In this document: positions 44,832-64,000 of the stretch, in pieces | Numbering within the stretch: the first letter of the stretch is position 1 | Layout of the letters: every line of letters starts with the position of its first letter | IMG/VR virus record: IMGVR_UViG_3300001533_002283 | Coordinates: 108,182-172,181 of that record | Source of the DNA: a virus | DNA: 64,000 bases | Strand: one strand, 5' to 3' | Program-made: the position numbers and the translations under genes | Notes under the pieces: generated by a model | Told to the model about the DNA's origin: nothing | Seen by the model: the letters and a program-made list of their open reading frames with translations, nothing else | Databases searched by the model: none

Positions 44832-44885
44832 TAGGAAGTTTACAGAATTTTGGGATAAAATTGAAACGGGTATTACAATGGACTT

Positions 44886-45161: not shown

Positions 45162-45256
45162 TTGAGCAGGAGGGCGAGGATTTGAACGGCGATCACCACG
45201 ACGAGAAACGCGGCAATCGCTCGCCATTGGTCGCGGATTTCGTGGAGGAGGCGCAT
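45158..45256 (-). CDS. 32-residue membrane peptide
   Basis: Short gene starting ATG at 45256 (MRLLHEIRDQWRAIAAFLVV) with one hydrophobic segment to its end. The start follows the DUF4376-like gene stop by two bases, and its stop overlaps the next start as ATGA, so all three are probably translated in series. GC-rich, unlike the next gene. Could be a holin-like or regulatory peptide. Confidence 0.45.
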   Translation of the reverse strand: MRLLHEIRDQWRAIAAFLVVVIAVQILALLLK

Positions 45257-45258
45257 GG

Positions 45259-45762: not shown

Positions 45763-45767
45763 GGTAA

Positions 45768-47738: not shown

Positions 47739-47789
47739 AAGTTTTATGCTTGCTTAATTTTTATTCTATATTGATTCTCCATTACCTTA

Positions 47790-49849: not shown

Positions 49850-51733
49850 TTAGATTGCGAACGGTGTAAATGTATCGGGAACATCTTCTTCGATAATTTC
49901 TCGTGAAGCCAAATACATTTTGGTAGCCCAGTTGGCGAGCAACAGCGCGGAGTAACCGTCTTTTCGGATTCTATCCGGATTTTTACTTCTACGGAAATTC
50001 AACGGCAAATCCCAAGATTGCGAACCGAGTGCGCTAGACGACACTTCAATCATCGCACATTGTTGCTTCAACTTATCCATCAAAGTGTCTTGCCATTCAA
50101 TGAATTGATTAACCGACATATCTTTATAATATTCGTGCTGGCTTAACATTCCTATATCTGCGTCGAGAGCCCGCGCGCCCTCTGTTTCATTGGCGGTTAA
50201 CTTACCCGCGAAGAAAAGACGCTTAAAGTCCAAACACCCTTGCATATATTCGTTGGCGGATTTAGTGAAAGTCCCACCGAATGGTTGTTTATGGACGATT
50301 CTGCCCGACTCTTTATTATAAGATTGGCGAATTTCTTTCGGAGTCTCGCTTTGGTCATCGCGTTTAAAATCCGCTTGAATATCAACGATATTGACTTTGT
50401 TGTTTTTGAAAAGTTGAGAGTTGTTGGCGGAGGTGATAAACTCATTATCGCCCTGTGAAGAGTCGATAGAAATATAGATGATGTTAAAGTTTTTTAGTAA
50501 GAAATAAAGGTATAGAATGTGATCTTGGAAGTTACCACCCGCGACCATATAGTTGTGGACAACCATTGGGACTATCTCATCACCCTTTTTAATTAACTTT
50601 ACTACCACCATTGCAAAATAGTCGCTGTATTCGGCGCTGGAAAAGGAAGGGTCAATACCTAAAACGTATTCATCACCGGGAGTTCCGATAACTTCAATGC
50701 AAGGCGACTTACCATCTTCAATAGTGCATTCTTTCATTTTTTTAGCACTAAAGTAGGAATCGGAATCAGCGGTAAAGATAGCCCTATACTCTCGGTTGAA
50801 AACGGATTCGGAGGTTTGGCCGTTTTTGGCTTCCTCAATGGTTTTCATATTAACTAGACCATCGGGGGCGGCTTCGTAACTGAGGCGAGAAACAAAATAT
50901 CTTGCTCCGTCAAACTCAATGGTTTTCTTTTCTTCTGTTTCCGTAAAAGTCCCTAAGATTTTCCCCTTCCAATTGCAATACTCCCTATACATATCTTCGA
51001 ACTGATAACCAGCGGAAGAAAGGTTAATCACCTTAATATCGCTCTCCATTTTCGCCCGCTCACTCTCCAACATTCTACCCTCTTTAATCAAACGATCTTC
51101 CTCTCTTTTTATCCTAAGTTGTTCTTTGATATTGTTATTTGCTGAGAGGAACGGCTGGACTATAGACAGGAGGATTTCTGAGCTTAAGAAATTTCGCTCA
51201 TCCACAATTACGGTTTCCGCACGAATACCACGGAGTTTTTTACCGTCGCCAAGAGGAACGCAAAGAACACTGGCTCCATTTGGCAGCACCCATTTCCACT
51301 CATCGTTTTTGCGATTCATGTCTTTGGGGAAACAATTTTTTAGCAAGCCATTTTCGTCTTCTTTTACAAATGACTCAACCTGTTCTAGAATGCGGCGAGA
51401 AGCACGGAAAGCAAAGGAGATAATTACAATGCGACAACGGGGGTTAAATAAGGCCCAAAACAAACAAAACATTGCCGCCATATAGCTCTTACCATTGCCA
51501 CGACCCATCACCGTGAGAGAATAATGATTTCTCATCCAACCCTTCATGATGATTTCTTGCATGGGGAACATTTCCATTCCGCCAAGGATATTCAAGGTAA
51601 GTCCCGGATTTGCGAAAAGAAATTCCGCGAGGGTGGCCATTGCCTCTTCGTCGGATAACTCGCCCTCCAATTTTCTCATTTCCGCATTAACGTCCTTATG
51701 CGGGCGTCCTTTGGCTAATCCCGCTTCCCACAT
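49850..51733 (-). CDS. Terminase large subunit (DNA packaging motor)
   Basis: 627 residues. ATPase: Walker A VMGRGNGKS at 75-83, Walker B ETVIVDERN with Asp178-Glu179, and upstream helix with FPMQEIIMKGWMRNH. Nuclease domain: YVLGIDPSFSSAEYSDYFAM near 365 (metal Asp), YISIDSSQGDNEF near 435, and DADIGMLSQHEYY towards the end, giving the acidic triad of an RNase H-like fold. It pumps DNA into the prohead and cuts it at the end. Start ATG is preceded by TAACATT. Neighbour genes: methylase upstream, portal downstream. Confidence 0.9.
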   Translation of the reverse strand: MWEAGLAKGRPHKDVNAEMRKLEGELSDEEAMATLAEFLFANPGLTLNILGGMEMFPMQEIIMKGWMRNHYSLTVMGRGNGKSYMAAMFCLFWALFNPRCRIVIISFAFRASRRILEQVESFVKEDENGLLKNCFPKDMNRKNDEWKWVLPNGASVLCVPLGDGKKLRGIRAETVIVDERNFLSSEILLSIVQPFLSANNNIKEQLRIKREEDRLIKEGRMLESERAKMESDIKVINLSSAGYQFEDMYREYCNWKGKILGTFTETEEKKTIEFDGARYFVSRLSYEAAPDGLVNMKTIEEAKNGQTSESVFNREYRAIFTADSDSYFSAKKMKECTIEDGKSPCIEVIGTPGDEYVLGIDPSFSSAEYSDYFAMVVVKLIKKGDEIVPMVVHNYMVAGGNFQDHILYLYFLLKNFNIIYISIDSSQGDNEFITSANNSQLFKNNKVNIVDIQADFKRDDQSETPKEIRQSYNKESGRIVHKQPFGGTFTKSANEYMQGCLDFKRLFFAGKLTANETEGARALDADIGMLSQHEYYKDMSVNQFIEWQDTLMDKLKQQCAMIEVSSSALGSQSWDLPLNFRRSKNPDRIRKDGYSALLLANWATKMYLASREIIEEDVPDTFTPFAI

Positions 51734-51737
51734 AATG

Positions 51738-52490
51738 TTAAATTAACCCCTTTCCAAACAATCTTTCCTTCGCAATATTAAAATATTTTTCTTCCTTTTC
51801 TATTCCTAAGAATCGCCGATTTAGATTGCGGGCTGCGAGACAGGTTGTGCCGGAACCTATGCAATTATCTAAAATTAAATCATTTTCGTTTGAATGAGTT
51901 TTAATTAAATACTCAAAAAGCGCGACAGGTTTCTGCGTTGGATGTAAACACCCCTCGTTTTCCGCTGTCACGAAATACTGAACACTTCTTGGGAATCTAT
52001 CTCCTTTGTTATCATTTCTGAAAGTAGGATTAGGAACGTCATTAACCAACTCTGTTTTAGACCCCTTTTTGGACCTACCCTCTCCTTTGTATGGTTTTCC
52101 CAGTGTTTTTTGAGGATTGTAGGTTGGGTTTCCGCCACCGTTACAAAAAACCAAAATGTCCTCGTGTGCCTTAAGTGGTTGTTTTTTTGCCAAAAGAAAA
52201 TTACTAGCTTTTGACTTTTCCCAAACCCAAGAGTATTTAAAATCTTTAGGGTTGCTCATTACAAGAGCCGAAGTAAAAGGTTGAGAGGCTGTCAAAACAA
52301 TAGCCGCGCCGTCTTTACATACGCGACGGTATTGAGCCCACAAACTATTAAACGGAATTACCGAATCCCATTTCGCGGCAGTCGTCCCATAAGGTAAATC
52401 GCACAAAATCATATCTACTGATTTATCAGGGATTTGTGTCATTAAATCTAGGCAATCGCCAAGATAGATGTTGTTGGACTGTAGATTCAT
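51738..52490 (-). CDS. DNA methyltransferase, beta-type (adenine N6 or cytosine N4)
   Basis: 250 residues. Catalytic motif DLPYG near residue 34 precedes the SAM-binding motif (LDNCIGSGTTCLAARNLNRR) near 215, the order of beta-class methylases such as those recognising short sites. A target-recognition region lies between. No restriction gene adjoins it, so it is probably a solitary phage methylase used to protect phage DNA or mark it for packaging. Four bases separate it from the ERCC4 nuclease gene upstream and from the terminase gene downstream. Confidence 0.85.
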   Translation of the reverse strand: MNLQSNNIYLGDCLDLMTQIPDKSVDMILCDLPYGTTAAKWDSVIPFNSLWAQYRRVCKDGAAIVLTASQPFTSALVMSNPKDFKYSWVWEKSKASNFLLAKKQPLKAHEDILVFCNGGGNPTYNPQKTLGKPYKGEGRSKKGSKTELVNDVPNPTFRNDNKGDRFPRSVQYFVTAENEGCLHPTQKPVALFEYLIKTHSNENDLILDNCIGSGTTCLAARNLNRRFLGIEKEEKYFNIAKERLFGKGLI

Positions 52491-52494
52491 AATT

Positions 52495-53418
52495 TTAAAT
52501 TAATTCTTTCTCAATGGAGAATAAAAGGTCAGTAGTTTTTGCCTGTTCGCCTAATTGGTAAATCTTCAAGATAGTATCAGCGAGTTTTGTGCGCCCATCG
52601 CAAAAGATAAATTGCAGGTTATTAAACTCCAGCATTAAATCCCTCATGTTTTTTTGAATATGTTCCGGCGATACCTTTGTAAATTTTTTCATCCTCCAGT
52701 CCTTGTCAAAAGACTGGAATTTATTATAATCTACTTCTACCGCGACGATTAAATATGCGTCGTCTTTTCTCGCACGCTCTATCTCTCTGTAAAATCTTTC
52801 ATAACCACTTGAGATCGTTGAAATCAAATCGCTTAGGGACTTCCTCTCCACAAAAATATTGCTATTTCCCTCACTTAGGGTGTAATCCCCGTAATTTAAT
52901 TTCTTAACCTCACTTTTAATGAATTTCAATGGAGTTTGTTCGCGCGAATCGCACAACACCTTGAAGTTGGCAGGTGGCGGATTAAACACCAACGGGCGCA
53001 CGTAATCAAACTTGGGGATTAACCCGATGGATTCGCACATCTCGTTATAATCACAATGTTCTTGCAAAAACTTAATGGAGGGGCAAAACAATGTTCTTAA
53101 CTCAAAATGACTCGGGGCATAGGTAAGCCCCTTTTCTTTTTTTCGCGCGGCAAGGTAGTTTTTAGTCCACTCTACGGCATCTTTTGGGTTTGCCCGCGCC
53201 CATTTGTTGAGATTATTCTTGTTAAGAAAATCGGTCTTAAAGTAAGATTTGTAATCTTTAAAGAGAATAAGTTCTCCCGTAAGCCTGTCTTTACGTGGAT
53301 AATGGGTTTGATAATAGTCGGCTTGCTTAACTTTTATTCTTCGTAAATGAAGATGTAGGTCAGGAAGGGTAGGGTGACTTGACCCATCAATTTTACATAT
53401 AAGATTTGGTTCATTCAT
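52495..53418 (-). CDS. ERCC4/XPF-type nuclease
   Basis: 307 residues from ATG at 53418, preceded by TAACACC; a longer frame overlaps the previous gene. The C-terminal half has the XPF/ERCC4 nuclease signature: VLCDSREQTPLKF, LNYGDYTL, FVERKSLSDLISTI and RFYREIER. These include the GDY and ERK catalytic residues of structure-specific nucleases. The N-terminal 150 residues are unknown (HPTLPDLHLHLRRIKVKQAD). The enzyme may resolve branched DNA before packaging, in place of a phage resolvase. Placement beside terminase and methylase supports this. Confidence 0.75.
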   Translation of the reverse strand: MNEPNLICKIDGSSHPTLPDLHLHLRRIKVKQADYYQTHYPRKDRLTGELILFKDYKSYFKTDFLNKNNLNKWARANPKDAVEWTKNYLAARKKEKGLTYAPSHFELRTLFCPSIKFLQEHCDYNEMCESIGLIPKFDYVRPLVFNPPPANFKVLCDSREQTPLKFIKSEVKKLNYGDYTLSEGNSNIFVERKSLSDLISTISSGYERFYREIERARKDDAYLIVAVEVDYNKFQSFDKDWRMKKFTKVSPEHIQKNMRDLMLEFNNLQFIFCDGRTKLADTILKIYQLGEQAKTTDLLFSIEKELI

Positions 53419-53422
53419 GGTG

Positions 53423-54565
53423 TTACCTACTAATGTTTTTTTCATCTAAACCATAAATTTCGGCTTTTAACTGATCCAATGTGGAAAGTCGCTCAACTTC
53501 TTGTTCCAACTCCTTACCCCTATCCATTGCTCGGTCTATCATCTTATCGCGGGTTTCCTTCTGTTTCCATAAATTCACCATGTTATATAAAGTAGCGTTA
53601 GTTGATTTTGCCTCAATTCTCTTGGAGCGGTCTTCAATCAACATGCTCATCAACTTCGCATACTTATCCTTCGCATCCTTTTGTCTCTGCCGAAACTTAT
53701 CTAAAGTCTCCGCCAAAGTAACCGACATTTTCTCATCACTAGACCCATTCAAAATTTCATTATACTTATCGTTAATCATTTGAATGTTGCGCTCAATTTG
53801 CGCAATCGACACAATTTCCACACACAACGAAATATAATTATGAATATCCTCTTTTAAACAATCCGGCTTATCATAAAGGAACTCGATAAAAGTGCTTTCA
53901 AACAAATCACGGTCCAAACTGTTTTTATACTGATTGATTTGGTATAAAAATCGGTAATTCGTCATATAGTCCAACAACGAGTTCAAATTTCTAATCTCGG
54001 CTTGTTTCAACTCTTTTATTTCCAAAAACGGTTTTGTTGAATCGCCGGTTTTCTTAAAATATTTGTTAACCCGTGGGATTAGTCTTGCCACGCTAGAAAC
54101 GGGAATGTATTCCTCTGCCAACTCATCCTCTGGTAACACTAAACTCGGACCAAGTTCCTTATAATATTTGATAACCGCGCGGGCCTCGCGACTTAATTGA
54201 CTTAACTTGATATTGTTAAAAAGCGTCCTCGTGCATTCCAAAGGCCGCATAGAATTTGCATTCTTGCGAACGAACTGCATTTGTTCCTTGGTAAGTTCAA
54301 GGTCTCCCGCCGCCTTGAATAAAGTAGTTTTTAACTTATCTTTTACCTCTTGTCGCCCATATTGGTGAATCAAATATTCCTTAATCGCCCTACCTTCAAA
54401 CGTCTGTCCCGTAACGCTCTCATCCTCAAACACTTTTCGCGCCAACTCGTCCAAATTCATCTTATCCCAATAAACCGAAATCATTTTCATCTGATTCTCG
54501 GATAGAGAGGCAAGAGCCTCCTTGGTGCTACCAAAACGTTTAGAACTTTCTTGTGGGGCATCCAT
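53423..54565 (-). CDS. Helical protein, candidate small terminase subunit
   Basis: 380 residues, almost entirely helical. The first 60 residues resemble a helix-turn-helix (MKMISVYWDKMNLDELARKV, then FEGRAIKEYLIHQYG). A central helical part and a C-terminal coiled coil follow (KELEQEVERLSTLDQLKAEI). It is upstream of the nuclease, methylase and large terminase. The position and helix-turn-helix plus oligomerising coil would fit a large version of a small terminase. Similarity to known small terminases is not evident, so this is inference. Confidence 0.45.
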   Translation of the reverse strand: MDAPQESSKRFGSTKEALASLSENQMKMISVYWDKMNLDELARKVFEDESVTGQTFEGRAIKEYLIHQYGRQEVKDKLKTTLFKAAGDLELTKEQMQFVRKNANSMRPLECTRTLFNNIKLSQLSREARAVIKYYKELGPSLVLPEDELAEEYIPVSSVARLIPRVNKYFKKTGDSTKPFLEIKELKQAEIRNLNSLLDYMTNYRFLYQINQYKNSLDRDLFESTFIEFLYDKPDCLKEDIHNYISLCVEIVSIAQIERNIQMINDKYNEILNGSSDEKMSVTLAETLDKFRQRQKDAKDKYAKLMSMLIEDRSKRIEAKSTNATLYNMVNLWKQKETRDKMIDRAMDRGKELEQEVERLSTLDQLKAEIYGLDEKNISR

Positions 54566-54568
54566 AAA

Positions 54569-55234
54569 TTAACAAATATCCTTGTTTCTAAGTAACTCTT
54601 TTGCCTTTCTCACAAATAAATCTTTATAGTTTTTTATTTGACGATAACCCGGCGCGCGGTTCACTTCGTTAGTTTTAAACTTCATAGCTTCAGCAACCTC
54701 CAAATCACTCTTGTTTTCAATAAACATTAGTTTAAACACTTTATACTCTAATGGATTTAACACTTGTTTCATTTCTTCGAAAAGTAATCCCTTGGAAGTT
54801 TCCACGTTAAAAAAATCTTGCTGAATATTATGAATTTCCCAAGTGTGATTCTCCACACTAAGGGGAATCTTTACGTCGAATGCGGCCTTTTTGCTCTTTT
54901 CCCACGCGGCGTAAAACGGGCATTCGGCGCACTTTTTTCGACTTTCCGTAAACTTACAATCATCCTCACCCTCATCCCCAACACACTTAAAACACGGCGG
55001 AGTATAATTGGTGTAACTCTCCTCCGTAACATTAATTAAATAGTTCGTGATTAAAGTATTAACCCACGGGCCGAACGGACGCTCCTGATCCCACTTATCC
55101 CATTTGTTGAAGACCCTCAATCTTATACCCTGTGCCAAATCATCAAAATCAATGTGGGGATACCTCCACTTACCCCGCCTCTTTTGAATTTCCTTATCTA
55201 TTTGTTCCGAGTAGTCTTGATACTTGTAAGGCAT
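54569..55234 (-). CDS. Second sigma factor with zinc-finger insert
   Basis: 221 residues. Region 2-like: DFDDLAQGIRLRVFNKWDKW and PFGPWVNTLITNYLINVTEE. Then a four-cysteine insert (PPCFKCVGDEGEDDCKF, then CAECPFYAAW), a probable zinc-binding module. The C-terminus has a region-4-like helix-turn-helix (LEYKVFKLMFIENKSDLEVA). It is carried on the late strand ahead of the packaging genes and overlaps no neighbour. With the sigma at 5521 there are two phage sigma factors; this one may control the late structural genes or sporulation-like host programmes. The role is inferred. Confidence 0.65.
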   Translation of the reverse strand: MPYKYQDYSEQIDKEIQKRRGKWRYPHIDFDDLAQGIRLRVFNKWDKWDQERPFGPWVNTLITNYLINVTEESYTNYTPPCFKCVGDEGEDDCKFTESRKKCAECPFYAAWEKSKKAAFDVKIPLSVENHTWEIHNIQQDFFNVETSKGLLFEEMKQVLNPLEYKVFKLMFIENKSDLEVAEAMKFKTNEVNRAPGYRQIKNYKDLFVRKAKELLRNKDIC

Positions 55235-55277
55235 AGGGAGCGTTTGGTTTTAAAAGGGTGGTGGTTTCCCGCCTTTT

Positions 55278-55706
55278 TTACTCTCCCACCTCGGTTGAGG
55301 CTTCTGGACTTTGTTTGATAAACTTACGGCGTATTTCCAACTGGGCTTGTTTCGGGTCTGTCATATTACCCACGGGGCGGTCAGAATCGGCAACGAATGC
55401 CCCATTAGATTGAATGTCTCGCAATGTCACTTTCTTGCCTATATTCGCCACGCCAATTTTGAATTCACCAAGTTCCGCAATGTCGTTGTCGTCCGTTTCT
55501 TCATCGCGGGTTGAAAGTTGAAAAGTGAAGGCGGGGCGGGACTGGGGTTGCGCGGCGACTTTTTTAGCAGCCGGTTGAGTTTGTGCGATGGCAAAATTAA
55601 AACCACCGGAGAAAGGTTCTCCGCAGTGAGCGCAAAATTTAGGTTTAGCAGCCTCGTAGTGTGTTACCTTGGCGCAAGAGGTGTTAGAACAATAGATTTT
55701 ATTCAT
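55278..55706 (-). CDS. Zinc-ribbon protein, possible transcription or packaging accessory
   Basis: 142 residues. The N-terminus has C-x4-C and C-x2-C pairs (YCSNTSCAKV, then KFCAHCGEPF), a zinc ribbon. An alanine- and proline-rich linker and a beta-rich acidic domain follow (ELGEFKIGVANIGKKVTLRD). It lies next to the sigma factor, so a role as transcription co-factor is plausible. No family recognised. Confidence 0.55.
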   Translation of the reverse strand: MNKIYCSNTSCAKVTHYEAAKPKFCAHCGEPFSGGFNFAIAQTQPAAKKVAAQPQSRPAFTFQLSTRDEETDDNDIAELGEFKIGVANIGKKVTLRDIQSNGAFVADSDRPVGNMTDPKQAQLEIRRKFIKQSPEASTEVGE

Positions 55707-55759
55707 CTTATGGTAATAATTGAAAATTGTCGAAAAAGTGGCAAGGGCGTTTCAAAATC

Positions 55760-55800
55760 GCATAAAAAATCTGTAACGTCCGAAAATCGTTACAGATTAA
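55760..55800 (-). terminator. Terminator after the lipoprotein genes
   Basis: A perfect 11-bp stem AATCTGTAACG (55768-55778) and CGTTACAGATT (55788-55798) with a nine-base loop. On the minus strand it is followed by TTTTT. It separates the PhoH-metallopeptidase-lipoprotein operon from the zinc-ribbon and sigma genes. Confidence 0.8.
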
Positions 55801-55821
55801 AAGTTTAAAAGAGAAATTTAA

Positions 55822-56340
55822 TTAAAACTTAATTAAAAATATAGACTCTTTTTCGGTTTGTGTTAGATTTAACATTTTGCCAGTTTGAGGCTCAAAGAAT
55901 ATGAATCCATCCTTGGTTAATATCAGGTTAATAGCATGCCCAACAGTTCCATCCTTTTTGTAATAAAGCTCCGCAACCGCTAATGCCTCTCCTTCCCCAA
56001 ATTCTTTTCTTGATTCTACCAAATGCTTGATTTGTAAAAAACTTGCGAAAGACTGGGAGAACCGATTGCAATCAAATTGCCGGTCCCAACGAACAACACC
56101 TTTGTTAAACAAATCTTGGCGATATTCATCATAATATTTCCCCAATTTACTAATGTCAAATACGGAATAATTGGCGTCTCCAGTGATTGGATAGGCTCTT
56201 AAAGAGCCAAAAACCTGAAAACTCATATCTTGTTTTGTTAAAACTGGATTCTTTGGCGGCGGGCCAAGGGGCTCGTTAAGCGGGACGCACCCAACAAGAA
56301 ACAGTGACGTTAAAATTAAAACGATGTTAAATTTTTTCAT
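55822..56340 (-). CDS. Lipoprotein with papain-like or transglutaminase-like motifs
   Basis: 172 residues from ATG at 56340, inside the end of the previous gene. The N-terminus is a lipoprotein signal (MKKFNIVLILTSLFLVGC) with lipobox LVGC. The mature part has FDCNRFSQSFASFL (Cys), GHAINLILTKDGFIFFEPQT (His, then Glu/Pro), a Cys-His-acid order common in papain-like and transglutaminase-like folds. It would be anchored in the membrane of a Gram-negative cell. Possibly involved in lysis or in blocking superinfection. Catalysis is inferred. Confidence 0.55.
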   Translation of the reverse strand: MKKFNIVLILTSLFLVGCVPLNEPLGPPPKNPVLTKQDMSFQVFGSLRAYPITGDANYSVFDISKLGKYYDEYRQDLFNKGVVRWDRQFDCNRFSQSFASFLQIKHLVESRKEFGEGEALAVAELYYKKDGTVGHAINLILTKDGFIFFEPQTGKMLNLTQTEKESIFLIKF

Positions 56341-57373
56341 AATGGCGCAAAACCTCTTTGATGTAGCCCGTCGCTTCTTTATCCTCAACTTTATCATCTT
56401 TAACATATTTCTTATTATATTCTTCTAGAATAGGTTTTAACGCCTTATACTTCTCTGGCTGAGTTTCCTTAAATTCCTGAATGGCATTAAAAGCGTTTGC
56501 GGAACTCTGAGAAATAATCCCTACTTTTCTAAATAGGAAGTAAAGGCCGAGAATGATAGCGATAGTAAAAATGATAGTAAAGTGCAACGGCTGCATGAAT
56601 ATGATTAATATTGCACCCGCGCCAGTAATCGCAGAGAAGGTAAAGGCTTGTTTTTTAAATAAAGGTAGGTAAAGGCCAATGAAAAGAGCGGCAACGCTCA
56701 ACACCCCCAAAACACTCATCGCTAACCTTTTGTTTTTCTCTATCGCCTCGTGCCGCGCTTTGGCAATTCCCTCCGCGTCTAGCAATTTATCTTGAAGCTG
56801 AGACAGTTCGCCTTGGGCCGAAATAATTTTATCATCATATTCTTTCTGAATCTTAATTTTTTCCGCCTCTAAGAGAATTACCTGTTCTTTGCTTAAAGCC
56901 GTCTCAGTAACCAAACCTTCTTTTTCTTTCACTACCTCACCGTGAACTCTTTGAAGTTCGGCCAAACTGGTTTGTTTCTCGTCCAGTTCTTTCACTAACC
57001 GCTCTTGTTCTGCTCTCATGGCCTCCAAGGTTGGACTAACACCTAACGCCGCCATAGCCTCATCAATGCGATTGAATGTTATCAGCGTCACTCGATTTTC
57101 CTCCTCGTATAATGGGCGAGTGAGTTTTGCGCCCCACAAGCTATTCGCCGCCGATTGAATCTGAGCCCCTTGATTATTAATAACTTGCGACAACCCCTGT
57201 TTTATCTCCGCCTCTTTTGCCGCGACAGCCTGCGTTCCCTCAATTTTAATCCGTTCAATCTCGGCCCGCGCAACCTCTACCTTTTGATACCCCGCACGAT
57301 TTGCAATGTGAGAACATCCCGTCAGGAGTAACGCCCCGAGTATAACAATTAATATTTTTTTACCTTTTTTCAT
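56327..57373 (-). CDS. Lipoprotein with coiled coil and membrane segments, spanin-like candidate
   Basis: 348 residues. Signal and lipobox: KILIVILGALLLTGCSH. Then a long coiled coil (residues about 30-215, such as EKIKIQKEYDDKIISAQGEL) and two or three membrane segments (LAMSVLGVLSVAALFIGLYL, ITGAGAILIIFMQ, FTIAIILGLYFLFRK), and a charged cytoplasmic tail. A lipoprotein joined to a coiled coil and inner-membrane segments would bridge both membranes, as unimolecular spanins do. It overlaps its neighbours by 14 bases on both sides. Lysis role inferred. Confidence 0.5.
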   Translation of the reverse strand: MKKGKKILIVILGALLLTGCSHIANRAGYQKVEVARAEIERIKIEGTQAVAAKEAEIKQGLSQVINNQGAQIQSAANSLWGAKLTRPLYEEENRVTLITFNRIDEAMAALGVSPTLEAMRAEQERLVKELDEKQTSLAELQRVHGEVVKEKEGLVTETALSKEQVILLEAEKIKIQKEYDDKIISAQGELSQLQDKLLDAEGIAKARHEAIEKNKRLAMSVLGVLSVAALFIGLYLPLFKKQAFTFSAITGAGAILIIFMQPLHFTIIFTIAIILGLYFLFRKVGIISQSSANAFNAIQEFKETQPEKYKALKPILEEYNKKYVKDDKVEDKEATGYIKEVLRHYEKI

Positions 57374-57803
57374 TGGTTTTATCCTTTTTTTTAAAATAGT
57401 GTTTTTTCCAGAACTCTTTGGCGTTTTTAAAACCCTCTTTGGTTAACTCTGGGGGAGAGAAGGGAATGCCGAACATTTTTAACATGACGTTGGCTCGTTT
57501 TACCGCGTCCATTTCCGCGTCAATGATTTGTTCAAAAATTTCTTCGTTAAATGGTTGCTTGGCTTTCATCTTGAAGAATTCTGGAAATTCGTTATATCTA
57601 GCTTGCTGCCAATGAGATCGTTCATGACACAAGTAATAGCAACCTTCTAAAGTTTCTTTATACTCAGAGGATATTGTAACAAGGTCTTTGACTGGGCAAT
57701 ATAAACCACCCGCCCCATTCAACTTTCTATGAATAATTTTAACGCCTTCCCCCCGAAAGGTTTTTAAAAGAAGAGTGTAATAGCCTTGGGGGGTAATAGG
57801 CAT
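57360..57803 (-). CDS. Zinc metallopeptidase-like protein
   Basis: 147 residues. It has an HExxH-type motif (CHERSHWQQ, His60-Glu61-His64) in a helix after a short strand, and a downstream DAEMDA with Glu97 as possible third ligand, in the manner of gluzincins such as ImmA/IrrE or SprT-like proteins. The N-terminal part is mixed. No signal peptide, so it acts in the cytoplasm or virion. The natural target is unknown. It precedes the lipoprotein gene with a 14-base overlap. Confidence 0.6.
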   Translation of the reverse strand: MPITPQGYYTLLLKTFRGEGVKIIHRKLNGAGGLYCPVKDLVTISSEYKETLEGCYYLCHERSHWQQARYNEFPEFFKMKAKQPFNEEIFEQIIDAEMDAVKRANVMLKMFGIPFSPPELTKEGFKNAKEFWKKHYFKKKDKTNEKR

Positions 57804-57808
57804 GGCGT

Positions 57809-58591
57809 TTATTGGAACATTGGTTCCGGTTGAGGATTATAGGTGCCTTCAATTTTGTCCAGAACAAAGCCTAGGAATTTACTTCTGACAATATCGGCGC
57901 GGGTAAAGCTAAAACAGTGAATACCATAATCTTTACTCTCGCCATTATTAAATAAATCAAACATAGGCATAAAACCAGATTTTTCTTTTAAGTCGCTTTG
58001 GCCGGGGTCGCCGCAAACAATTAACTTGCTGTATTTCCCCAGTCTTGTCACAATGGTCTTCAACTCCAGAGGGGTAAGGTTTTGGCTTTCATCCACGATA
58101 ACATATTTAGCGTTCCAAGAAGAGCCTCGAACGAAATTAACCACGTTTCCAGCAATTCGATTTTCTTTTTTAAGACGATCAACATCGCCTTTGGGTAAAA
58201 GTTCTTCTAATTTGTCATAAAGTGGTGCTAGATAAGGACTTACCTTAAGTTCCAAATCTCCGGGAAGCGCGCCCAAAGATTTACTTGCACTTTCGATAGC
58301 AGAGCGGAGATAAAGAATATCTGATTGGGCTTTATTATTTAAAGCGAGTAATCCCGCGTAAATTGCCGTGAATGACTTAGATGTTCCCGCGCACCCCGAA
58401 ACGAAAACAATATTGGTTTTTTTATCAAGAATAAGTTCGATCAACTCTTTTTGTTTATCGGTTAAATCTTTTCTATGAAAAATAGTTAATTCCGATTTTA
58501 GTTTATCTCTCTGAGGGATAATTGGACTTTCATCTTTCTTAGCTCCCACTGGTGACTCGTTATCTTTAACAGAACGGTGTTTTTTACTCAT
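57809..58591 (-). CDS. phoH: PhoH-like ATPase
   Basis: 260 residues from ATG at 58591; an in-frame ATG at 58600 is also possible. Features: KELIELILDKKTNIVFVSGC into Walker A GCAGTSKS, Walker B YVIVDESQN, and sensor VCGDPGQSD, with GALPGDLE between, all in PhoH order. PhoH-type ATPases are among the most common phage genes, and their function is not settled; RNA helicase activity has been suggested. It begins the minus-strand operon, opposite the rightward clpP-like gene. Confidence 0.9.
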   Translation of the reverse strand: MSKKHRSVKDNESPVGAKKDESPIIPQRDKLKSELTIFHRKDLTDKQKELIELILDKKTNIVFVSGCAGTSKSFTAIYAGLLALNNKAQSDILYLRSAIESASKSLGALPGDLELKVSPYLAPLYDKLEELLPKGDVDRLKKENRIAGNVVNFVRGSSWNAKYVIVDESQNLTPLELKTIVTRLGKYSKLIVCGDPGQSDLKEKSGFMPMFDLFNNGESKDYGIHCFSFTRADIVRSKFLGFVLDKIEGTYNPQPEPMFQ

Positions 58592-58665
58592 AAGTGTCAT
58601 AGAATGATACAGTTTTTCCTCGCTTTTTGGAAAAGGGGCTGATGGAATAAATTTGTGTTAAAAAC

Positions 58666-58694
58666 TTGACAGGTTGGCGCGAAAAATGAATAAC
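58666..58694 (+). promoter_or_regulatory. Promoter for the ClpP-like gene
   Basis: TTGACA (58666-58671), 17 bases, AATAAC (58689-58694), eight bases before the ATG at 58703. Confidence 0.6.
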
Positions 58695-58702
58695 TACCTT
58701 AT

Positions 58703-59404
58703 ATGATTATCAAAACCGATATTCCCAGCAACCTGATTGAACACCCTGAAGACGCGCCCTCTCGTGTCACCCATCCTAAGTTCATTACCATCAATGAGTT
58801 TAGTGAATATGCCTATAGCCGTTTTGTCCAAGCATTTAATCAGATGTTGCAGGAGCCACAAGATATTATACCCGTCGCGATTGATAGCCCCGGCGGCAGT
58901 ATTGTCTCGCTTATGGGTATTCGAGACCTAATCGCTTGCTCTCCTAAACCCGTCCTCACCACGGTTGCTTCCTGCGCGGCCTCGTGTGGGGCTCTTCTTC
59001 TTGCTCTTGGCACTCGCGGTTATCGTTACGCTTCTCCCAACGCCATGATTCTTATACATGAAGCGAGCACTTCTACCGAGGGTAAAACTTCCGAGATTAT
59101 GAACGAGGCTCTTTATGTTGAAAAACTGAATGACAAACTACTGGATATTCTTGCCGCCCACTCTAATCGTTCCAAAGATTTTTACAAAAAACTGATTAAC
59201 AAAAATAATAATTCAGACCTTTTTATTACACCCGAACAGGCACTTGAATGGGGTATCGTAGACCACATTGCGATTCCAAAAATCACGATGAGTGTTAAAT
59301 TAGATTATAAAGTTGAGCCGATTTATCCTAATAAGGTAGTTAAAATGTCTAAGATTAAGACGAAGGGAAAACCCACAAAAGCTGTTAAGGTTGTAAAGCC
59401 TTGA
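58703..59404 (+). CDS. ClpP-family serine protease
   Basis: 233 residues. Active-site features of ClpP: DSPGGSIVSLMGI, Ser94 in SCAASCGALLLA, His119 in MILIHEAS and Asp187 in LEWGIVDHI. The C-terminal 40 residues are basic (KIKTKGKPTKAVKVVKP). Phage ClpP homologues act as head maturation proteases or as regulators of host proteolysis. Here a separate protease-scaffold fusion exists, so an accessory role is more likely. It is alone on the plus strand with its own promoter and terminator, directly beside the cassette array. Confidence 0.85.
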   Translation: MIIKTDIPSNLIEHPEDAPSRVTHPKFITINEFSEYAYSRFVQAFNQMLQEPQDIIPVAIDSPGGSIVSLMGIRDLIACSPKPVLTTVASCAASCGALLLALGTRGYRYASPNAMILIHEASTSTEGKTSEIMNEALYVEKLNDKLLDILAAHSNRSKDFYKKLINKNNNSDLFITPEQALEWGIVDHIAIPKITMSVKLDYKVEPIYPNKVVKMSKIKTKGKPTKAVKVVKP

Positions 59405-59423
59405 TTCTTAACCAGTCGAACCA

Positions 59424-59470
59424 CACTAACCAAGCGGGAGAAATCTCTTCTCGGTTTTTTCGTTTTTTTA
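59424..59470 (+). terminator. Candidate terminator after the ClpP-like gene
   Basis: GAGAA and TTCTC pair over a short loop, extended by AACC with GGTT over a bulge, followed by TTTTTTCGTTTTTTT. The stem is imperfect but the T-run is long. Confidence 0.5.
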
Positions 59471-59480
59471 AGATTTCCGC

Positions 59481-59509
59481 TTGACAATCACCCGTGAAAA
59501 CATAATTAT
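59481..59509 (+). promoter_or_regulatory. Phage-type promoter at the phage/array border
   Basis: TTGACA (59481-59486), 17 bases, AATTAT (59504-59509). It points right into the attC site at 59548, against the direction of the cassette genes. Possibly the promoter of a phage gene that was cut off or displaced at the border. Confidence 0.45.
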
Positions 59510-59547
59510 TCTTTTTGTGAAAGCTAAAAATGATTCTGATTTACCAC

Positions 59548-59646
59548 CCCTAACGTTAAAGATGAGCCATGCACGCCGATGGCACTGGATGTGCGTAAGC
59601 ACAGACTGTGACAGCGGTGGGCATTGGCTCCGTCGCCTTGTTAGGC
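59548..59646 (-). other. attC-like recombination site A
   Basis: Read on the minus strand: GCCTAAC (59640-59646), eight bases, GGAGCCA (59625-59631), an imperfectly palindromic centre, TGGCTCA (59563-59569), eight bases, GTTAGGG (59548-59554). The order is the R''-L''-L'-R' layout of attC. The last R' base deviates from GTTRRRY. It ends the array on the phage side and follows the 59716-60111 gene. Confidence 0.75.
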
Positions 59647-59715
59647 TCCCTTATTTTCCTTATCTGGTTCAAGGTTGCGTGATACTGATAAGCATGATTG
59701 TCACTTTCGGGCTCG

Positions 59716-60111
59716 TTAGATTATTTTGGCTATAATCGCAGTAATAATAACCGATGAAATCCAAATCAAAAACGTGACTAAATTAGTGAACATAAACTTC
59801 GCAGAGGGCCAAATATATCGTCCCCACATTCCCGGAGGATTCATAATCTGATTCCACTTTTCTTGATCGGTAAGAATCAATCTATGATCTATTCTTTGTT
59901 TTCCTTCTTTATCCGTAAACTCAAAGGGTTCGATCAACTTTTCATGCTCAAGAATGGTGAATATCTGATAGGCAACGATTCGGTCAAATCCGAGTGTTTC
60001 GGGGTCGGAATTTTCTTTCGTCAAGTCCTTGTAAGACCAATCAACAGAGCGATGCTTTCGAGCGTAAAGCCAAGATGCGGCTTTTGCGGTTTGTTCTGAG
60101 TATACGTTCAC
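59716..60111 (-). CDS. Cassette protein with winged-helix-like part and C-terminal membrane segment
   Basis: 131 residues, with GTG at 60111 as start. The N-terminal 80 residues are predicted helices and a hairpin (AYQIFTILEHEKLIEPFEFT then RIDHRLILTDQEKWNQI), a winged-helix-like pattern. The end is a hydrophobic helix (LVTFLIWISSVIITAIIAKI). A membrane-anchored DNA-binding or sensor protein is possible. It is the only gene of the cassette between sites B and A; 69 bases lie between its stop and site A. Function unknown. Confidence 0.55.
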   Translation of the reverse strand: MNVYSEQTAKAASWLYARKHRSVDWSYKDLTKENSDPETLGFDRIVAYQIFTILEHEKLIEPFEFTDKEGKQRIDHRLILTDQEKWNQIMNPPGMWGRYIWPSAKFMFTNLVTFLIWISSVIITAIIAKII

Positions 60112-60185
60112 TGGAGACTTTAATTTTATGTATAACGATAAATCTAATCAAAAATCCATTGAATCCCAAGGCTCGGATTCTCTCT

Positions 60186-60301
60186 GCCTAACGTCCAAGA
60201 TGAGCCATGACTGTGATTGGCACTGAGCGTGCTGCCTTGTCGCGCAAGCGACTGCACGATCTGTGACAAGCATAGGCATTGGCTCTAGCGCCTTGTTGGG
60301 C
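60186..60301 (-). other. attC-like recombination site B
   Basis: On the minus strand GCCCAAC (60295-60301), eight bases, AGAGCCA (60280-60286), a longer centre, TGGCTCA (60201-60207), eight bases, GTTAGGC (60186-60192). It directly abuts the TGA stop of the 60302-60568 gene, as usual for the end of a cassette gene. Centre about 72 bases. Confidence 0.75.
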
Positions 60302-60568
60302 TCATTTGTATTTTATTATAACGCTGCCGGAGTCTTTTCGGGCAGCGATTAAAACCTTGGCGCTTTCGGGAAGTGCTTTCGTATATTTATATCCCAAAGA
60401 TATCCTTCTATACTTTCTGTCTATCCTCTTTTTTCCTAGAAACCAATCTCCCAAATAAAAATCAATTTCGGTCAAATTCCCGAAAACTGATTCAAACTCC
60501 TTATCTTGGCGGCGTGGCCATATAAAATATCCGTATTCTCTGCTTCGCTTGGTAAATTCAACCTTCAT
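60302..60568 (-). CDS. Small basic protein behind the methylase gene
   Basis: 88 residues, rich in Arg, Lys and Tyr (DRKYRRISLGYKYTK). It begins beyond a pair of AAGCTT sites behind the methylase. Its stop touches the attC site. It may belong to the restriction-modification unit, for example as a regulator, but no helix-turn-helix is clear. No family recognised. Confidence 0.5.
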   Translation of the reverse strand: MKVEFTKRSREYGYFIWPRRQDKEFESVFGNLTEIDFYLGDWFLGKKRIDRKYRRISLGYKYTKALPESAKVLIAARKDSGSVIIKYK

Positions 60569-60580
60569 TTATGTTTGGTA

Positions 60581-60597
60581 AAGCTTAAAACAAGCTT
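60581..60597. promoter_or_regulatory. Two AAGCTT sites 11 bases apart
   Basis: AAGCTT at 60581-60586 and 60592-60597, in the 45-base gap between methylase and 60302-60568 gene. This is the sequence recognised by HindIII, whose relatives are encoded just upstream. Spacing is one turn of the helix. They may serve in regulation through methylation or be chance. Confidence 0.35.
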
Positions 60598-60613
60598 AAA
60601 TCAAGCAAAAAAA

Positions 60614-61450
60614 CTAAATGGCTATCTGCATCTGCTGGGGCTTCGCTGCAATTACTTCTTCTTCCTTCGGCTCATAAGGCAAATCTACGCGAGTGCGAGC
60701 TATCGCGCAGTATTCCTCGCTGACATCAATTCCGATAAAATGACGGCCCAACTGTTTGGCGACTTTGCAGGTGGTGCCGCTTCCGCACATTGGATCTAAA
60801 ACAATATCTCCTTCGTTAGTCCAAGATAATATATGGTCGCGGGCTAGCTGACACGGGAAAGGTGCGGGGTGACCCTTCGCTTCCTGATCTTCGGCATTCT
60901 TTCCTACAACATACTCCCAGATATTTCCTTTTATCTTCTGATCCTTTACAGGATTCGCCATTTTCTCTCTGGTCTGAACCGTCTTAGAATAATTCTTGTA
61001 GGTTGTGCCGTTAAGTTGGAGTCCAGCGTGTAGGCAATCAACCATTATAGGATTGTGCGTCTTCACTACCCCCTTGCTGAATACAAACATATACTCAAAC
61101 TCATTATTATATCGTTTCCGATATATCTGGGGAATCGGATTCTTCTTCCTGAAAATCATTGTGTCATGAAGATTAAATCCGACTTCCTTAAAAAACAAAG
61201 CCTGCTTAAAGCTAGTGCCGGTTTCTGAACCTTCAATCGTCGCGTCACTAATAACCCAAACAACAACCCCGCCCGGTTTGAGGACTCTGAAAAGCTGCTT
61301 AGCTATATCCTCAAATCGAAAAGTATACCCATTATAGTTTCGTAGGTTGTCGTATGGCGGCGAAGTAACTACCAAATCAACCGATGACTCAGGCATCGAG
61401 GCTATCATCTCAACACAATCACCCTGAATAATTCTGTCTGTAAAATCCAT
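60614..61450 (-). CDS. Type II DNA methyltransferase of the HindIII-like system
   Basis: 278 residues. Motif IV TSPPYDNLRNY near residue 29 precedes the SAM-binding motif (VLDPMCGSGTTCKVAKQLG) near 215, the beta order. The next gene upstream is a HindIII-like endonuclease, so this methylase should modify adenine in AAGCTT and protect the DNA. It overlaps no other gene; seven bases separate it from the endonuclease stop. In the phage region AAGCTT is still present in several places (for example about 20449, 21077, 28396, 38693). Confidence 0.85.
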   Translation of the reverse strand: MDFTDRIIQGDCVEMIASMPESSVDLVVTSPPYDNLRNYNGYTFRFEDIAKQLFRVLKPGGVVVWVISDATIEGSETGTSFKQALFFKEVGFNLHDTMIFRKKNPIPQIYRKRYNNEFEYMFVFSKGVVKTHNPIMVDCLHAGLQLNGTTYKNYSKTVQTREKMANPVKDQKIKGNIWEYVVGKNAEDQEAKGHPAPFPCQLARDHILSWTNEGDIVLDPMCGSGTTCKVAKQLGRHFIGIDVSEEYCAIARTRVDLPYEPKEEEVIAAKPQQMQIAI

Positions 61451-61457
61451 AACTCTA

Positions 61458-62363
61458 TTATATGTCCATTATGCCATTATTGTCAACTGCTTTGATGGTC
61501 GCTATGCGGCTTTCAATCCGGTTTATCTTAATGAGTTCACGCAAAGCCTCATCATGACTCATTCTCATAATTTTCTCTCTTTCGTCCGCCAAATAAGCTA
61601 AGGCTAATTCTTTCGCTGCTGCAACCGACTCAACGGCAGCTTGCTTCTCATTCTTCCACAAATCTGAAATTCTCTTATCGAAAGAAAGCATAGCGCGATT
61701 AACGGAAGTCCAATATGCAATGGCATCTTTCGACGGATTAATTGCTGTGACCGATTTTAAAATGTCATGCAATAATCCTTCTGAATTCCCGCCTGCTGCT
61801 GCAAAACATACTAAAACGGAGAGGTGAGAATAAGTGAACACACAAACATTTCGGGATGTGGCTTGTTCATAAATCTGACTAGATCTGACCGGCAACTGAT
61901 AGATGGGGCAGACAACAACGGCATATGGTTTCCCGCGCTTCCAGGTATCCATCGCCGCGACCTTAAAATCTTTCTGGTTTTTAGCTGTTCGGCTTAGTCT
62001 AAAGGCCTTTGCGTCAGCAACTAAACTATAATTCTTACCGAATGCCTCAACATCTGCCGAGTCGCCACGCTCAGTTAAAATCAAACTTTTTAATCCAGAG
62101 GATGCGAAAGCATGGGATAAGAGAGCGTCCGTATACTTAGAATATAATTTCTCCTCACTAGAATCATGGTCATATTGCTCTGGAATGTCTCCACAAAGGC
62201 GCAAGTGATCTATAATGGAACCGACTCCGTTCTTGGAAAACTCATCTTTAAGCTCTCGCTCTAGTTTGGTGAAATCATCCACAAAGTTTCCGCTCAGCTT
62301 TTGGATTTCGCCTATCCAGTATTTACGGCGCGCAATCGCTTGATGACCAATGATATTTGACAT
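61458..62363 (-). CDS. HindIII-like type II restriction endonuclease
   Basis: 301 residues from ATG at 62363 (a TTG start at 62399 would add 12). Length and sequence resemble HindIII (300 residues): LVADAKAFRLSRTAKNQKDF is nearly identical to the enzyme, and ERGDSADVEAFG, YAVVVCPIYQLPVRSSQIYE and VFTYSHLSVL follow in the same order. The catalytic residues fit: Asp104, Asp117 and Lys119 in the PD-(D/E)xK arrangement. It should cut AAGCTT. The methylase lies directly downstream. It is in an integron-like cassette, not with the phage genes. Confidence 0.9.
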   Translation of the reverse strand: MSNIIGHQAIARRKYWIGEIQKLSGNFVDDFTKLERELKDEFSKNGVGSIIDHLRLCGDIPEQYDHDSSEEKLYSKYTDALLSHAFASSGLKSLILTERGDSADVEAFGKNYSLVADAKAFRLSRTAKNQKDFKVAAMDTWKRGKPYAVVVCPIYQLPVRSSQIYEQATSRNVCVFTYSHLSVLVCFAAAGGNSEGLLHDILKSVTAINPSKDAIAYWTSVNRAMLSFDKRISDLWKNEKQAAVESVAAAKELALAYLADEREKIMRMSHDEALRELIKINRIESRIATIKAVDNNGIMDI

Positions 62364-62399
62364 TCGGAAAAGTGAAGCTAATTTAGGTGTCTCGGTCAA

Positions 62400-62720
62400 G
62401 TTGATAGAGGCTGCGCGTTAGCGCGGCCCCCTCTTTTTCGTTGGCTGCGGTGATGTGGGCGTAGCCCACGGTAGAATTTGGAGTGCAAAGCACTTCATGA
62501 GCACGGCTTGCCGCGCGCAATGATGTGCGACGCACGGCTCGGGGTTCGTTGGTTTGGTTTTTGCGTGTTAAGCCTCGCCACCAGAAAGACGACTTTGTGA
62601 GGATTTGTGCGGCTTGTCCGCACGAACCGGAACAATGTCGGTAGGAACGTAGCCCCGTAGCCGAAAGTATTTTTGACATTTCGCCCGCGAATCGTAATAA
62701 TACTAATATATGGGCATCGC
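62400..62720. other. Non-coding, structured GC-richer spacer
   Basis: 321 bases without a credible gene between the endonuclease and the next gene. It holds AGAGG-CTGCGC-GTTA-GCGCGG-CCCCCTCT followed by TTTTT (a hairpin with T-run on the plus strand), the perfect hairpin GTGGGC-GTA-GCCCAC near 62456, and GTTAAGC at 62567-62573, which matches an R-box. No left R-box was found. It is richer in GC than its neighbours. It may be a divergent attC or the former end of another cassette. Confidence 0.4.
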
Positions 62721-63131
62721 TCAAACCAAGGTAACTCTAAAAACTCCACGAATCCACTTCTCTGGAATCGCGTCGAGTTCATTTGGTCTATTCGGATTCA
62801 TGACCAAGACAGCCTCTTCCTTTTTATCTACGAATCTGACGAAGTGCTTATTCCCTTCGTCACCCCTCCAGTGTATATACAACAGAATGGCTTCTTTATC
62901 TGTAAGAGTAAACCCACCAAAGACGGGTGAAATAGAAAAACCGGCTCGCTTACCAAATTCGGTAAGGAAATCGGAGCTGATACTACCTTCTATTTTCGTC
63001 CCGCCATTAAATAAATCGAGATTCTTTGAGATGAAGTCTCGGTGGCTGAAAGCGCGCCCGTTATCGGAAAAGAACGATTCGATGCGGGCACCGACACACG
63101 CGAACGGATTGTATTGCTGGATAATTTTCAT
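62721..63131 (-). CDS. Papain-like cysteine protease-like cassette protein
   Basis: 136 residues. It has the order Cys12 (QQYNPFACVGARIESF), His96 (EGNKHFVRFVDKKEE), Asn112 (VLVMNPNRP), like C39-type and other papain-like peptidases (C...H...N/D). No signal peptide or glycine-gly leader recognition is evident. It may be inactive or a toxin-like accessory. It lies in the cassette between sites C and B, upstream of the HindIII-like genes, perhaps originally a separate cassette. Confidence 0.5.
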   Translation of the reverse strand: MKIIQQYNPFACVGARIESFFSDNGRAFSHRDFISKNLDLFNGGTKIEGSISSDFLTEFGKRAGFSISPVFGGFTLTDKEAILLYIHWRGDEGNKHFVRFVDKKEEAVLVMNPNRPNELDAIPEKWIRGVFRVTLV

Positions 63132-63264
63132 ATGAAAGAGTATAAATTCAACATTAGTGAGGAACAGTCAAAAAGGGCTTTGGCCGAAAAGTGGAAAGCG
63201 GGCGAATTTCATGCCGAACACGGCCCCGATGGAGGTGATCCTACTCCTTGTTTGGTTTCTTTCT

Positions 63265-63363
63265 GCCCAACGTTAAAGATGAGCCATGTAGATGATTGGC
63301 GCGAAATGTGCGCAAGCACAGATCGTGACAAGCATCGGAATTGGCTCCATCGTTTGGTTAGGC
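63265..63363 (-). other. attC-like recombination site C
   Basis: On the minus strand GCCTAAC (63357-63363), eight bases, GGAGCCA (63342-63348), centre, TGGCTCA (63280-63286), eight bases, GTTGGGC (63265-63271). Nearly the same boxes as site A. It closes the cassette of the 63415-63621 gene. Confidence 0.75.
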
Positions 63364-63414
63364 TCCTTCCTTTTTATTCATATATTCAACGCCGAAAAGA
63401 ACACGGTATCGCGG

Positions 63415-63621
63415 TCAGCCTTTTAGCTGACTCACAAGAGTTTCAAGCGTCTGTTTCCGAACTAAGGTCTCATTTGCTAAAATCCTAATCTTTTCTTTTT
63501 CCGCGTCTGGCAGGTCTAATTTATTAGCGAGTAAATGAAGGATAAGACCTTCGTTTTCCATGCAGGCCGCAACATAACCACCAAGGCCGGCAATCATAAG
63601 TTTAATATTTTCGTTTTTCAT
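63415..63621 (-). CDS. Small cassette protein
   Basis: 68 residues, with MKNENIKLMIAGLGGYVAAC then a helical charged end (LPDAEKEKIRILANETLVRK, then LETLVSQLKG). It may be a short amphipathic or regulatory protein. 51 bases lie between its stop and the attC site. It begins three bases after the stop of the truncated permease, so the two are probably cotranscribed. No family recognised. Confidence 0.5.
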   Translation of the reverse strand: MKNENIKLMIAGLGGYVAACMENEGLILHLLANKLDLPDAEKEKIRILANETLVRKQTLETLVSQLKG

Positions 63622-63624
63622 TTT

Positions 63625-64000
63625 TTATTTCTGGGTTATAGCGAATCCAAACAAAATAATTAGAGCAATCATCATCACAGCCATTGTTTCGCCAACAGCG
63701 CGTCCTATTCCAAGTATTATTGCTGCAGTTATTCCTGAAAGGGCAGAAGGCAGTACAACTTTTCTAATCGTTTGCCATTTTGTTGCACCCATGGCAAGAG
63801 ATCCTTCTTTGTAGTGTCGCGGCACAGCATTTATTGCATCTTCTGCAACACTAGTAATAGTTGGAATTGCCATGATGCCAAGGATAATAGAACCAGCAAG
63901 CCATGTTTCACCAGTTGGAACACCATATCCTTTATATATCCAGTCAACTAGGATTATAAGCCCAAAAAAACCATAAACAACAGAGGGGATTCCAGCTAGA
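63625..64000 (-). pseudogene. Partial PstC-type phosphate permease, aberrant C-terminus
   Basis: The frame enters from the right edge (no start in the window) and runs 124 codons to TAA at 63625. Family features: LAGIPSVVYGFFGL, then ITSVAEDAINAVPRHYKEG, LAMGATKWQTIRKVVLPSAL and IILGIGRAVGETMAVMMIA, the EAA-type loop and last-helix start of PstC/PstA permeases. After MMIA the usual GN and last membrane helices are missing and the protein ends LIILFGFAITQK. This suggests a truncation, rearrangement or a join of two sequences near 63670. Whether it is functional is unknown. Confidence 0.6.

What the first reader, a model, noticed from the sequence alone, without database searches (positions are those of the whole stretch)
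59548..63621. Integron-like cassette array directly joined to a tailed-phage genome
Seen: three sites with R''-L''-L'-R' boxes in the canonical attC orientation (minus strand), each next to the end of a minus-strand gene, starting 144 bases after the ClpP-like phage gene. The R' box of site A is at the phage border. Known: attC sites belong to integrons, which are chromosomal or on plasmids and transposons; phage genomes with cassette arrays are not commonly described. Inference: either the phage carries a cassette array, or the contig joins a phage with a chromosomal array.
Basis: partly seen in the sequence, partly recalled or inferred. Interest (0 to 1): 0.9.

Follow-up and report, generated by a model that had tools for sequence, protein, structure and literature searches.

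The report
Phage carrying captured integron gene cassettes
A large virus of bacteria carries a short row of integron gene cassettes, one holding a complete HindIII-type DNA-cutting and DNA-protecting pair, whose joining sites match those of integrons in Opitutaceae bacteria; a relative of this virus carries other cassette sites elsewhere, so such phages seem to pick up cassettes repeatedly, a phenomenon first reported in 2023.

Summary
The three minus-strand sites (59548-59647, 60186-60302, 63265-63364) are true attC sites. A covariance model built only from bacterial attC sites finds them at 77-89 bits (E 6e-18 to 2e-21) and nothing elsewhere in the 172-kb virus record. The attC type belongs to Opitutaceae (Verrucomicrobiota) integrons: 33 of 100 genomes of that family carry it, and complete integrons with IntI beside the array exist. 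The record has no IntI, and the window lacks the Opitutaceae attI-like sequence, so this is a CALIN (cassette array without integrase). Its largest cassette encodes an intact-looking HindIII-family endonuclease and a methyltransferase with its own consensus promoter. A colinear relative (144 kb) places the array between the ClpP gene and the next conserved gene, with the border exactly at the IntI cleavage point of the last attC. The relative carries two attC of another type at another locus, which argues against a chimeric contig. Only the last ~340 bases, a cut pstC fragment, look foreign. CALINs in phages were reported in 2023 (PMC9892861), so this is a new member of a known kind. New are the verrucomicrobial attC type, the complete R-M pair and signs of repeated capture in one phage lineage. 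Reads across the junction were not available.

The parts
58703..59404 (+). phage ClpP-like head maturation protease gene, last phage gene before the array
   Evidence: Pfam CLP_protease 2.7e-29; PHROG head maturation protease 2.8e-24; 66-70% identical in three other viral contigs
59405..59547 (.). phage intergenic border: terminator-like hairpin (59435-59453) and a plus-strand promoter-like site (59481-59509) facing the array
   Evidence: consensus scan; assignment to the phage is inference
59548..59647 (-). attC site A, last site of the array, at the phage border
   Evidence: model R1 77.0 bits, E 5.8e-18
59716..60111 (-). cassette gene, 131 aa, unknown function, hydrophobic C-terminus
   Evidence: ORF; one distant homologue (28%) in 200 genomes of the Opitutaceae-type family
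60186..60302 (-). attC site B
   Evidence: model R1 89.3 bits, E 2.4e-21; 82% identical over 117 columns to an attC of an Opitutus-like MAG (L027), the main difference being an insert in the terminal loop
60302..60568 (-). small ORF, 88 aa, unknown, at the end of the R-M cassette
   Evidence: ORF only, no family match
60614..61450 (-). type II DNA methyltransferase of the R-M pair
   Evidence: Pfam N6_N4_Mtase 5.2e-52; 71-77% identical to the partner M gene in viral contigs L068-L073
61457..61486 (-). 12-of-12 sigma-70-like promoter (TTGACA-18-TATAAT) in front of the methyltransferase, so close that the transcript would be leaderless or nearly so
   Evidence: consensus scan, sequence; function inferred
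61458..62399 (-). HindIII-family restriction endonuclease; homologues suggest the ATG at codon 13 (62363) as the true start
   Evidence: Pfam RE_HindIII 6.3e-106; aligned to R.HindIII structure 2e52, E 2e-36, with the DAK motif kept; 58-65% identical homologues
62721..63131 (-). ORF of 136 aa, unknown function, in the same cassette
   Evidence: ORF; one weak homologue
63265..63364 (-). attC site C
   Evidence: model R1 87.0 bits, E 1e-20
63415..63621 (-). gene of the first visible cassette, 68 aa, unknown; its 5' cassette border is not recognisable
   Evidence: ORF; junction read
63625..64000 (-). fragment of a bacterial pstC (phosphate permease), open at the contig end and lacking its last ~65 residues; homology stops at about 63664. 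Probably foreign or chimeric end, not part of the cassettes
   Evidence: TIGR02138 157 bits, profile 110-231 of 296; best matches 61-64% in unrelated phyla

Best explanation
The record is a nearly whole genome of a large tailed phage, opened in assembly between its ClpP gene and the next conserved gene. In that interval the phage carries two complete gene cassettes and one whose start is not seen, each ended by an attC site of the Opitutaceae integron type, with no integrase and no attI found. The most likely route (inferred): during infection of an Opitutaceae-like host, the host IntI recombined a cassette or short array into a non-attI position of the phage genome (attG-like, G|TT), leaving the last attC fused to phage DNA exactly at its cleavage point. 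The R-M cassette can act on its own: the methyltransferase has a consensus promoter, so modification could precede restriction. It would protect the phage DNA at HindIII-type sites and destroy unmodified competitor DNA in the infected cell. Cassettes could later return to a host integron through the intact attC sites. Shown: attC identity, their bacterial source type, the R-M genes, the position. Inferred: host, route, function.
For: Window = bases 108182-172181 of a 172,181-bp virus record. The bacterial attC model finds the three sites at E <= 6e-18 and nothing elsewhere in the record. The same attC type occurs in 33 of 100 genomes of the family, with IntI over the curated cut-off in 7 of 8 attC-rich genomes and attC next to IntI. 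No tyrosine recombinase in the record: the IntI model, which rings in all 14 control genomes, finds none. The attI-like core shared by two Opitutaceae integrons is absent from the window even with 3 mismatches. Relative G070 shares 75 of 205 phage ORFs in the same circular order; its ClpP at 101.3-101.9 kb and next conserved gene at 103.2-103.6 kb correspond to the right and left ends of this record, so the array fills that interval. G070 has two attC of its own at 10104-10199 and 10415-10494, E 6e-7 and 3e-7. Intact-looking R and M; promoter before M.
Against: No reads were available to test the join at 59548. The far side of the array is a cut pstC fragment, not phage DNA, so the second border of the insertion is not seen. 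No empty site in a near-identical phage was found. The cassette genes have no close relatives in Opitutaceae, so the bacterial link rests on the attC sites alone. The promoters are consensus matches only.
Confidence: 0.78

Rival explanations
1. Chimeric contig: a phage contig was joined in assembly to a piece of an Opitutaceae chromosomal integron array ending in pstC.
For: The record ends in a bacterial pstC fragment whose 3' part is missing; no read data; the IMG/VR record is a linear fragment.
Against: The border lies exactly at the G|TT cleavage point of an attC, which a random join would not give. Both record ends fall in the same interval of the circularly permuted phage map and relatives read through it, so there is no fixed phage end there to be extended wrongly. 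A colinear relative carries its own attC pair at another place. The pstC fragment is at most 55% identical to those of the Opitutaceae-type family and at most 61% to Verrucomicrobiota, so it is not obviously the chromosome of the array's host.
Confidence: 0.15
2. Only the outer end is chimeric: the phage array is real up to about 63621, and the last ~340 bases (pstC) come from an unrelated bacterium. This is compatible with the best explanation and concerns its right border only.
For: PstC homology stops abruptly at residue 112 (about 63664) and about 40 AT-rich bases separate that point from the 68-aa cassette gene. Best pstC matches are 61-64% in Verrucomicrobiota, Bacteroidota and Vibrio alike.
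Against: It could also be a real gene remnant captured with the array; no reads to decide.
Confidence: 0.6
3. A phage inserted as prophage into a chromosomal integron at an attC site, so that the array is host DNA.
For: The border is at an attC R' box; a Vibrio prophage excising at attC sites is described in PMC9892861.
Against: No tyrosine recombinase gene in the record; relatives carry no attC at this interval; the left record end runs into another phage-like gene, not into an array.
Confidence: 0.06

Closest known systems
CALINs in virulent phages (TJE1, PH101, P12002L; Qi et al. 2023, PMC9892861)
   Same: attC sites and cassettes of bacterial type in a phage without integron integrase; DNA methyltransferase genes among the cargo; array placed just after a terminator-like hairpin, as in TJE1
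   Different: other phage group (172 kb), attC type of Opitutaceae, and a complete endonuclease-methyltransferase pair, where that paper reports methyltransferases; recombination activity was tested there, not here
Chromosomal integrons of Opitutaceae (e.g. Geminisphaera TAV2, L024; G201, G010)
   Same: attC sequence and structure, orientation of genes and attC
   Different: these genomes have IntI and, beside it, arrays of up to dozens of attC; the phage has three attC and no IntI or attI-like sequence
HindIII restriction-modification system (R.HindIII, PDB 2e52/3a4k)
   Same: endonuclease of the same family over most of its length, DAK motif kept
   Different: the methyltransferase is only 26% identical to the one beside a HindIII-type R on an E. 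coli plasmid, but 71-77% identical to partners in viral contigs; specificity untested
attG insertion of cassettes into genomes (Loot et al. 2024, doi 10.1038/s41564-023-01548-y, cited in PMC12901181)
   Same: cassettes outside an attI, border at the G of the last attC
   Different: shown for bacterial genomes; here only inferred from one border

Membership tests
attC site (integron cassette recombination site) | R''/R' (RYYYAAC ... G|TTRRRY) and L''/L' inverted boxes with an extrahelical base and variable terminal structure | tested here: met
   model R1 77-89 bits; alignment with bacterial sites; double changes in 13 of 26 pairs of the bacterial alignment
attC site (integron cassette recombination site) | recombined by IntI through the bottom strand | not testable with these tools
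   needs a recombination assay
Complete integron | integron integrase gene intI | tested here: not met
   TIGR02249 search of the whole record: none
Complete integron | attI site next to the array | tested here: not met
   Opitutaceae attI-like core (inferred from two integrons) absent from the window with up to 3 mismatches; the far side of the array is not seen
CALIN (cluster of attC lacking integrase) | at least two attC sites, no intI nearby | tested here: met
   three attC within 3.8 kb, no intI in 172 kb; sites B and C are 3.0 kb apart
Tailed phage genome | structural and packaging genes, colinear with other phages | tested here: met
   head protease and tape measure PHROGs, terminase similarity, 75 ORFs shared with G070
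HindIII-type R-M system | HindIII-family endonuclease with adjacent DNA methyltransferase, both full length | tested here: met
HindIII-type R-M system | cleaves and methylates AAGCTT | not testable with these tools
   needs an assay; AAGCTT occurs 21 times against 36.5 expected in the phage part, so it is not strongly avoided

The most novel reading that the evidence does not exclude
A lineage of large phages of integron-bearing bacteria repeatedly captures gene cassettes with the host integrase at non-attI positions and uses them as exchangeable modules for competition (here a self-regulated R-M pair), acting as a carrier that moves cassettes between host integrons.
Probability: 0.25. Interest if true: 0.6.

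Novelty: new member of a known kind. Interest (0 to 1): 0.42.

Why it matters
If the join is real, cassettes of Opitutaceae integrons ride in large tailed phages, giving integron cassettes a transfer route outside plasmids and transposons in a phylum where this has hardly been looked at. It also shows a phage obtaining a whole restriction-modification system as one ready-made cassette. Two related phages with different attC types at different loci suggest repeated capture, which can be tested by surveying this phage group.

Tried and rejected
Rfam search of 50000-64000: no match. Exact pattern AACGTYNAAGATGAGCCATG in viral contigs: none. pstC relatives in viral contigs: none. HindIII-type R in 388 Verrucomicrobiota genomes: only distant ones, so the R-M cassette could not be traced to that phylum. 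Methyltransferase in 200 Opitutaceae-family genomes: none at E <= 1e-40, without a positive control. A search for more relatives through a ClpP alignment gave only the same three close ones and three distant ones. A hidden fourth attC between the 136-aa gene and R (62400-62720, hairpin-rich) was considered: not recognised by R1, and no complete pair of R boxes found by reading. MFE folding alone is weak evidence (z -0.5 to -2.7) and was not relied on. Pattern hits L015, L016, L021, L022 look like chance matches without attC features. An attC-like match near the distant homologue of the 131-aa gene (L104, 23.9 bits) is too weak to use.

Full report
What was checked. The window is the right end (108182-172181) of a 172,181-bp IMG/VR virus record.

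Are they attC sites? A two-block pattern taken from the sites matched seven stretches in the collection of 84,980 bacterial and archaeal genomes, all in Verrucomicrobiota, mostly Opitutaceae. Twelve genomic sites from those stretches, none from the window, were aligned. Their consensus fold has 26 pairs, 13 of which show double changes that keep the pair, mostly in the variable stem that the pattern did not select. The covariance model R1 from them scores the three window sites 77.0, 89.3 and 87.0 bits on the minus strand and finds nothing elsewhere in the record. Part of the score is circular, because the pattern came from the window. The independent evidence is that R1 then finds the same type in 33 of 100 genomes of that family, up to 39 sites in one. 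Seven of eight attC-rich genomes have an integron integrase above the curated cut-off, and in several it lies next to the array: in G201 the sites end at 1304576 and IntI begins at 1305581; in G010 IntI ends at 465582 and the first site is at 466576. The attC type therefore belongs to true Opitutaceae integrons. Site B and a site of an Opitutus-like MAG (L027) agree over the whole length except mainly for an insert in the terminal loop, as expected of attC.

What is in the cassettes? Read on the minus strand: a 68-aa gene, attC C, a 136-aa ORF, a HindIII-family endonuclease, a DNA methyltransferase, an 88-aa ORF, attC B, a 131-aa gene, attC A. The endonuclease matches Pfam RE_HindIII at 6e-106 and R.HindIII in the PDB at 2e-36 with the DAK motif kept. 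The R-M order recurs in viral contigs at 61-65% (R) and 71-77% (M) identity, without attC of this type nearby. A 12-of-12 promoter match lies directly before the methyltransferase gene, so that modification could be expressed independently of restriction; this is inference.

Where does it sit in the phage? The phage is a large tailed phage: head protease and tape measure PHROGs, terminase similarity to cultured phages. The viral contig G070 (144 kb) shares 75 of 205 ORFs, largely in the same circular order. There ClpP (101.3-101.9 kb) is followed 1.3 kb later by the homologue of the gene at the left end of our record (292-801). So both ends of our record lie in one interval of a circular map, and the array fills that interval. 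Contigs L011 and L012 also read through it. The border between array and phage is at G|TT of the last attC, where IntI cuts. The seventh base of that R' box is off consensus (GTTAGGG), while the two inner junctions are canonical, consistent with insertion into a site that is neither attI nor attC.

Is the contig chimeric? Reads are not available, so this cannot be settled. Against a chimera at the phage border stand the exact cleavage-point border, the absence of a natural phage end there, and the fact that G070 carries its own pair of attC sites at 10104-10199 and 10415-10494, next to its primase-like gene, of another sequence type. Other virus records also carry arrays (G065 11 matches, G067 6, G068 7, G069 6); in G068 the array lies about 3 kb from a terminase gene, while the G066 sites lie beside a tyrosine integrase and could be chromosomal. 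At the other end the record runs into a pstC fragment that lacks its last ~65 residues, with homologues of only 61-64% identity in several phyla. That end is probably foreign or misjoined.

No integrase, no attI. The IntI profile finds nothing in the record, although it rings in all 14 control genomes at the same threshold. The attI-like core shared by G201 and G010 is absent from the window. The element is therefore a CALIN, not an integron.

Comparison with the known. Qi et al. 2023 (PMC9892861) screened 10,705 phage genomes, reported 17 CALINs and a few integrons, found methyltransferases in the cassettes, and showed that five of six phage attC sites recombine with attI1. The present case is a new member of that kind. 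It adds an Opitutaceae attC type, a complete R-M pair, and two related phages with separate captures. Insertion of cassettes outside attI through attG sites is described by Loot et al. 2024 (cited in PMC12901181); whether it applies here is inference.

Extra observation. In the phage part several 6-base palindromes are missing or rare (GGCGCC 0 of 28 expected, ATCGAT 0 of 20, CCGCGG 1 of 54, CCATGG 2 of 27), a sign of past restriction pressure, whereas AAGCTT occurs 21 times against 36.5 expected.

Noticed in passing
record positions 1-167728 (window 1-59547 and the part left of the window): Strong avoidance of many 6-base palindromes (GGCGCC, ATCGAT, GTCGAC, CACGTG and others absent; CCGCGG 1 of 54 expected), suggesting heavy exposure to type II restriction in the host.
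   Followed up: partly
62400-62720: G+C-rich stretch (54%) with several short perfect hairpins (GTGGGC-GTA-GCCCAC, GTGCAAAGCAC, GTGCGACGCAC) between the 136-aa ORF and the endonuclease gene; perhaps a decayed attC or repeat cluster.
   Followed up: partly
63625-64000: pstC fragment cut at about 63664 at the end of the record, of unclear origin.
   Followed up: partly
L052 (G070) 10104-10494: Two attC-like sites of a different type in a G+C-rich island beside the primase-like gene of a related phage.
   Followed up: partly
44001-48000 of the window: Rise in G+C to 52-58% over the genes at 45259-47738, against about 41% elsewhere: possible recent foreign insertion in the structural region.
   Followed up: no
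L068-L073: HindIII-type R and M gene pairs conserved in several viral contigs, one of 178 kb and one of 6.6 kb whose R gene runs across the contig ends (so probably circular).
   Followed up: partly
L053, L056, L057, L058 (virus records G065, G067, G068, G069): Four other IMG/VR records carry 6-11 attC-like matches each; G068 has a terminase gene nearby.
   Followed up: partly
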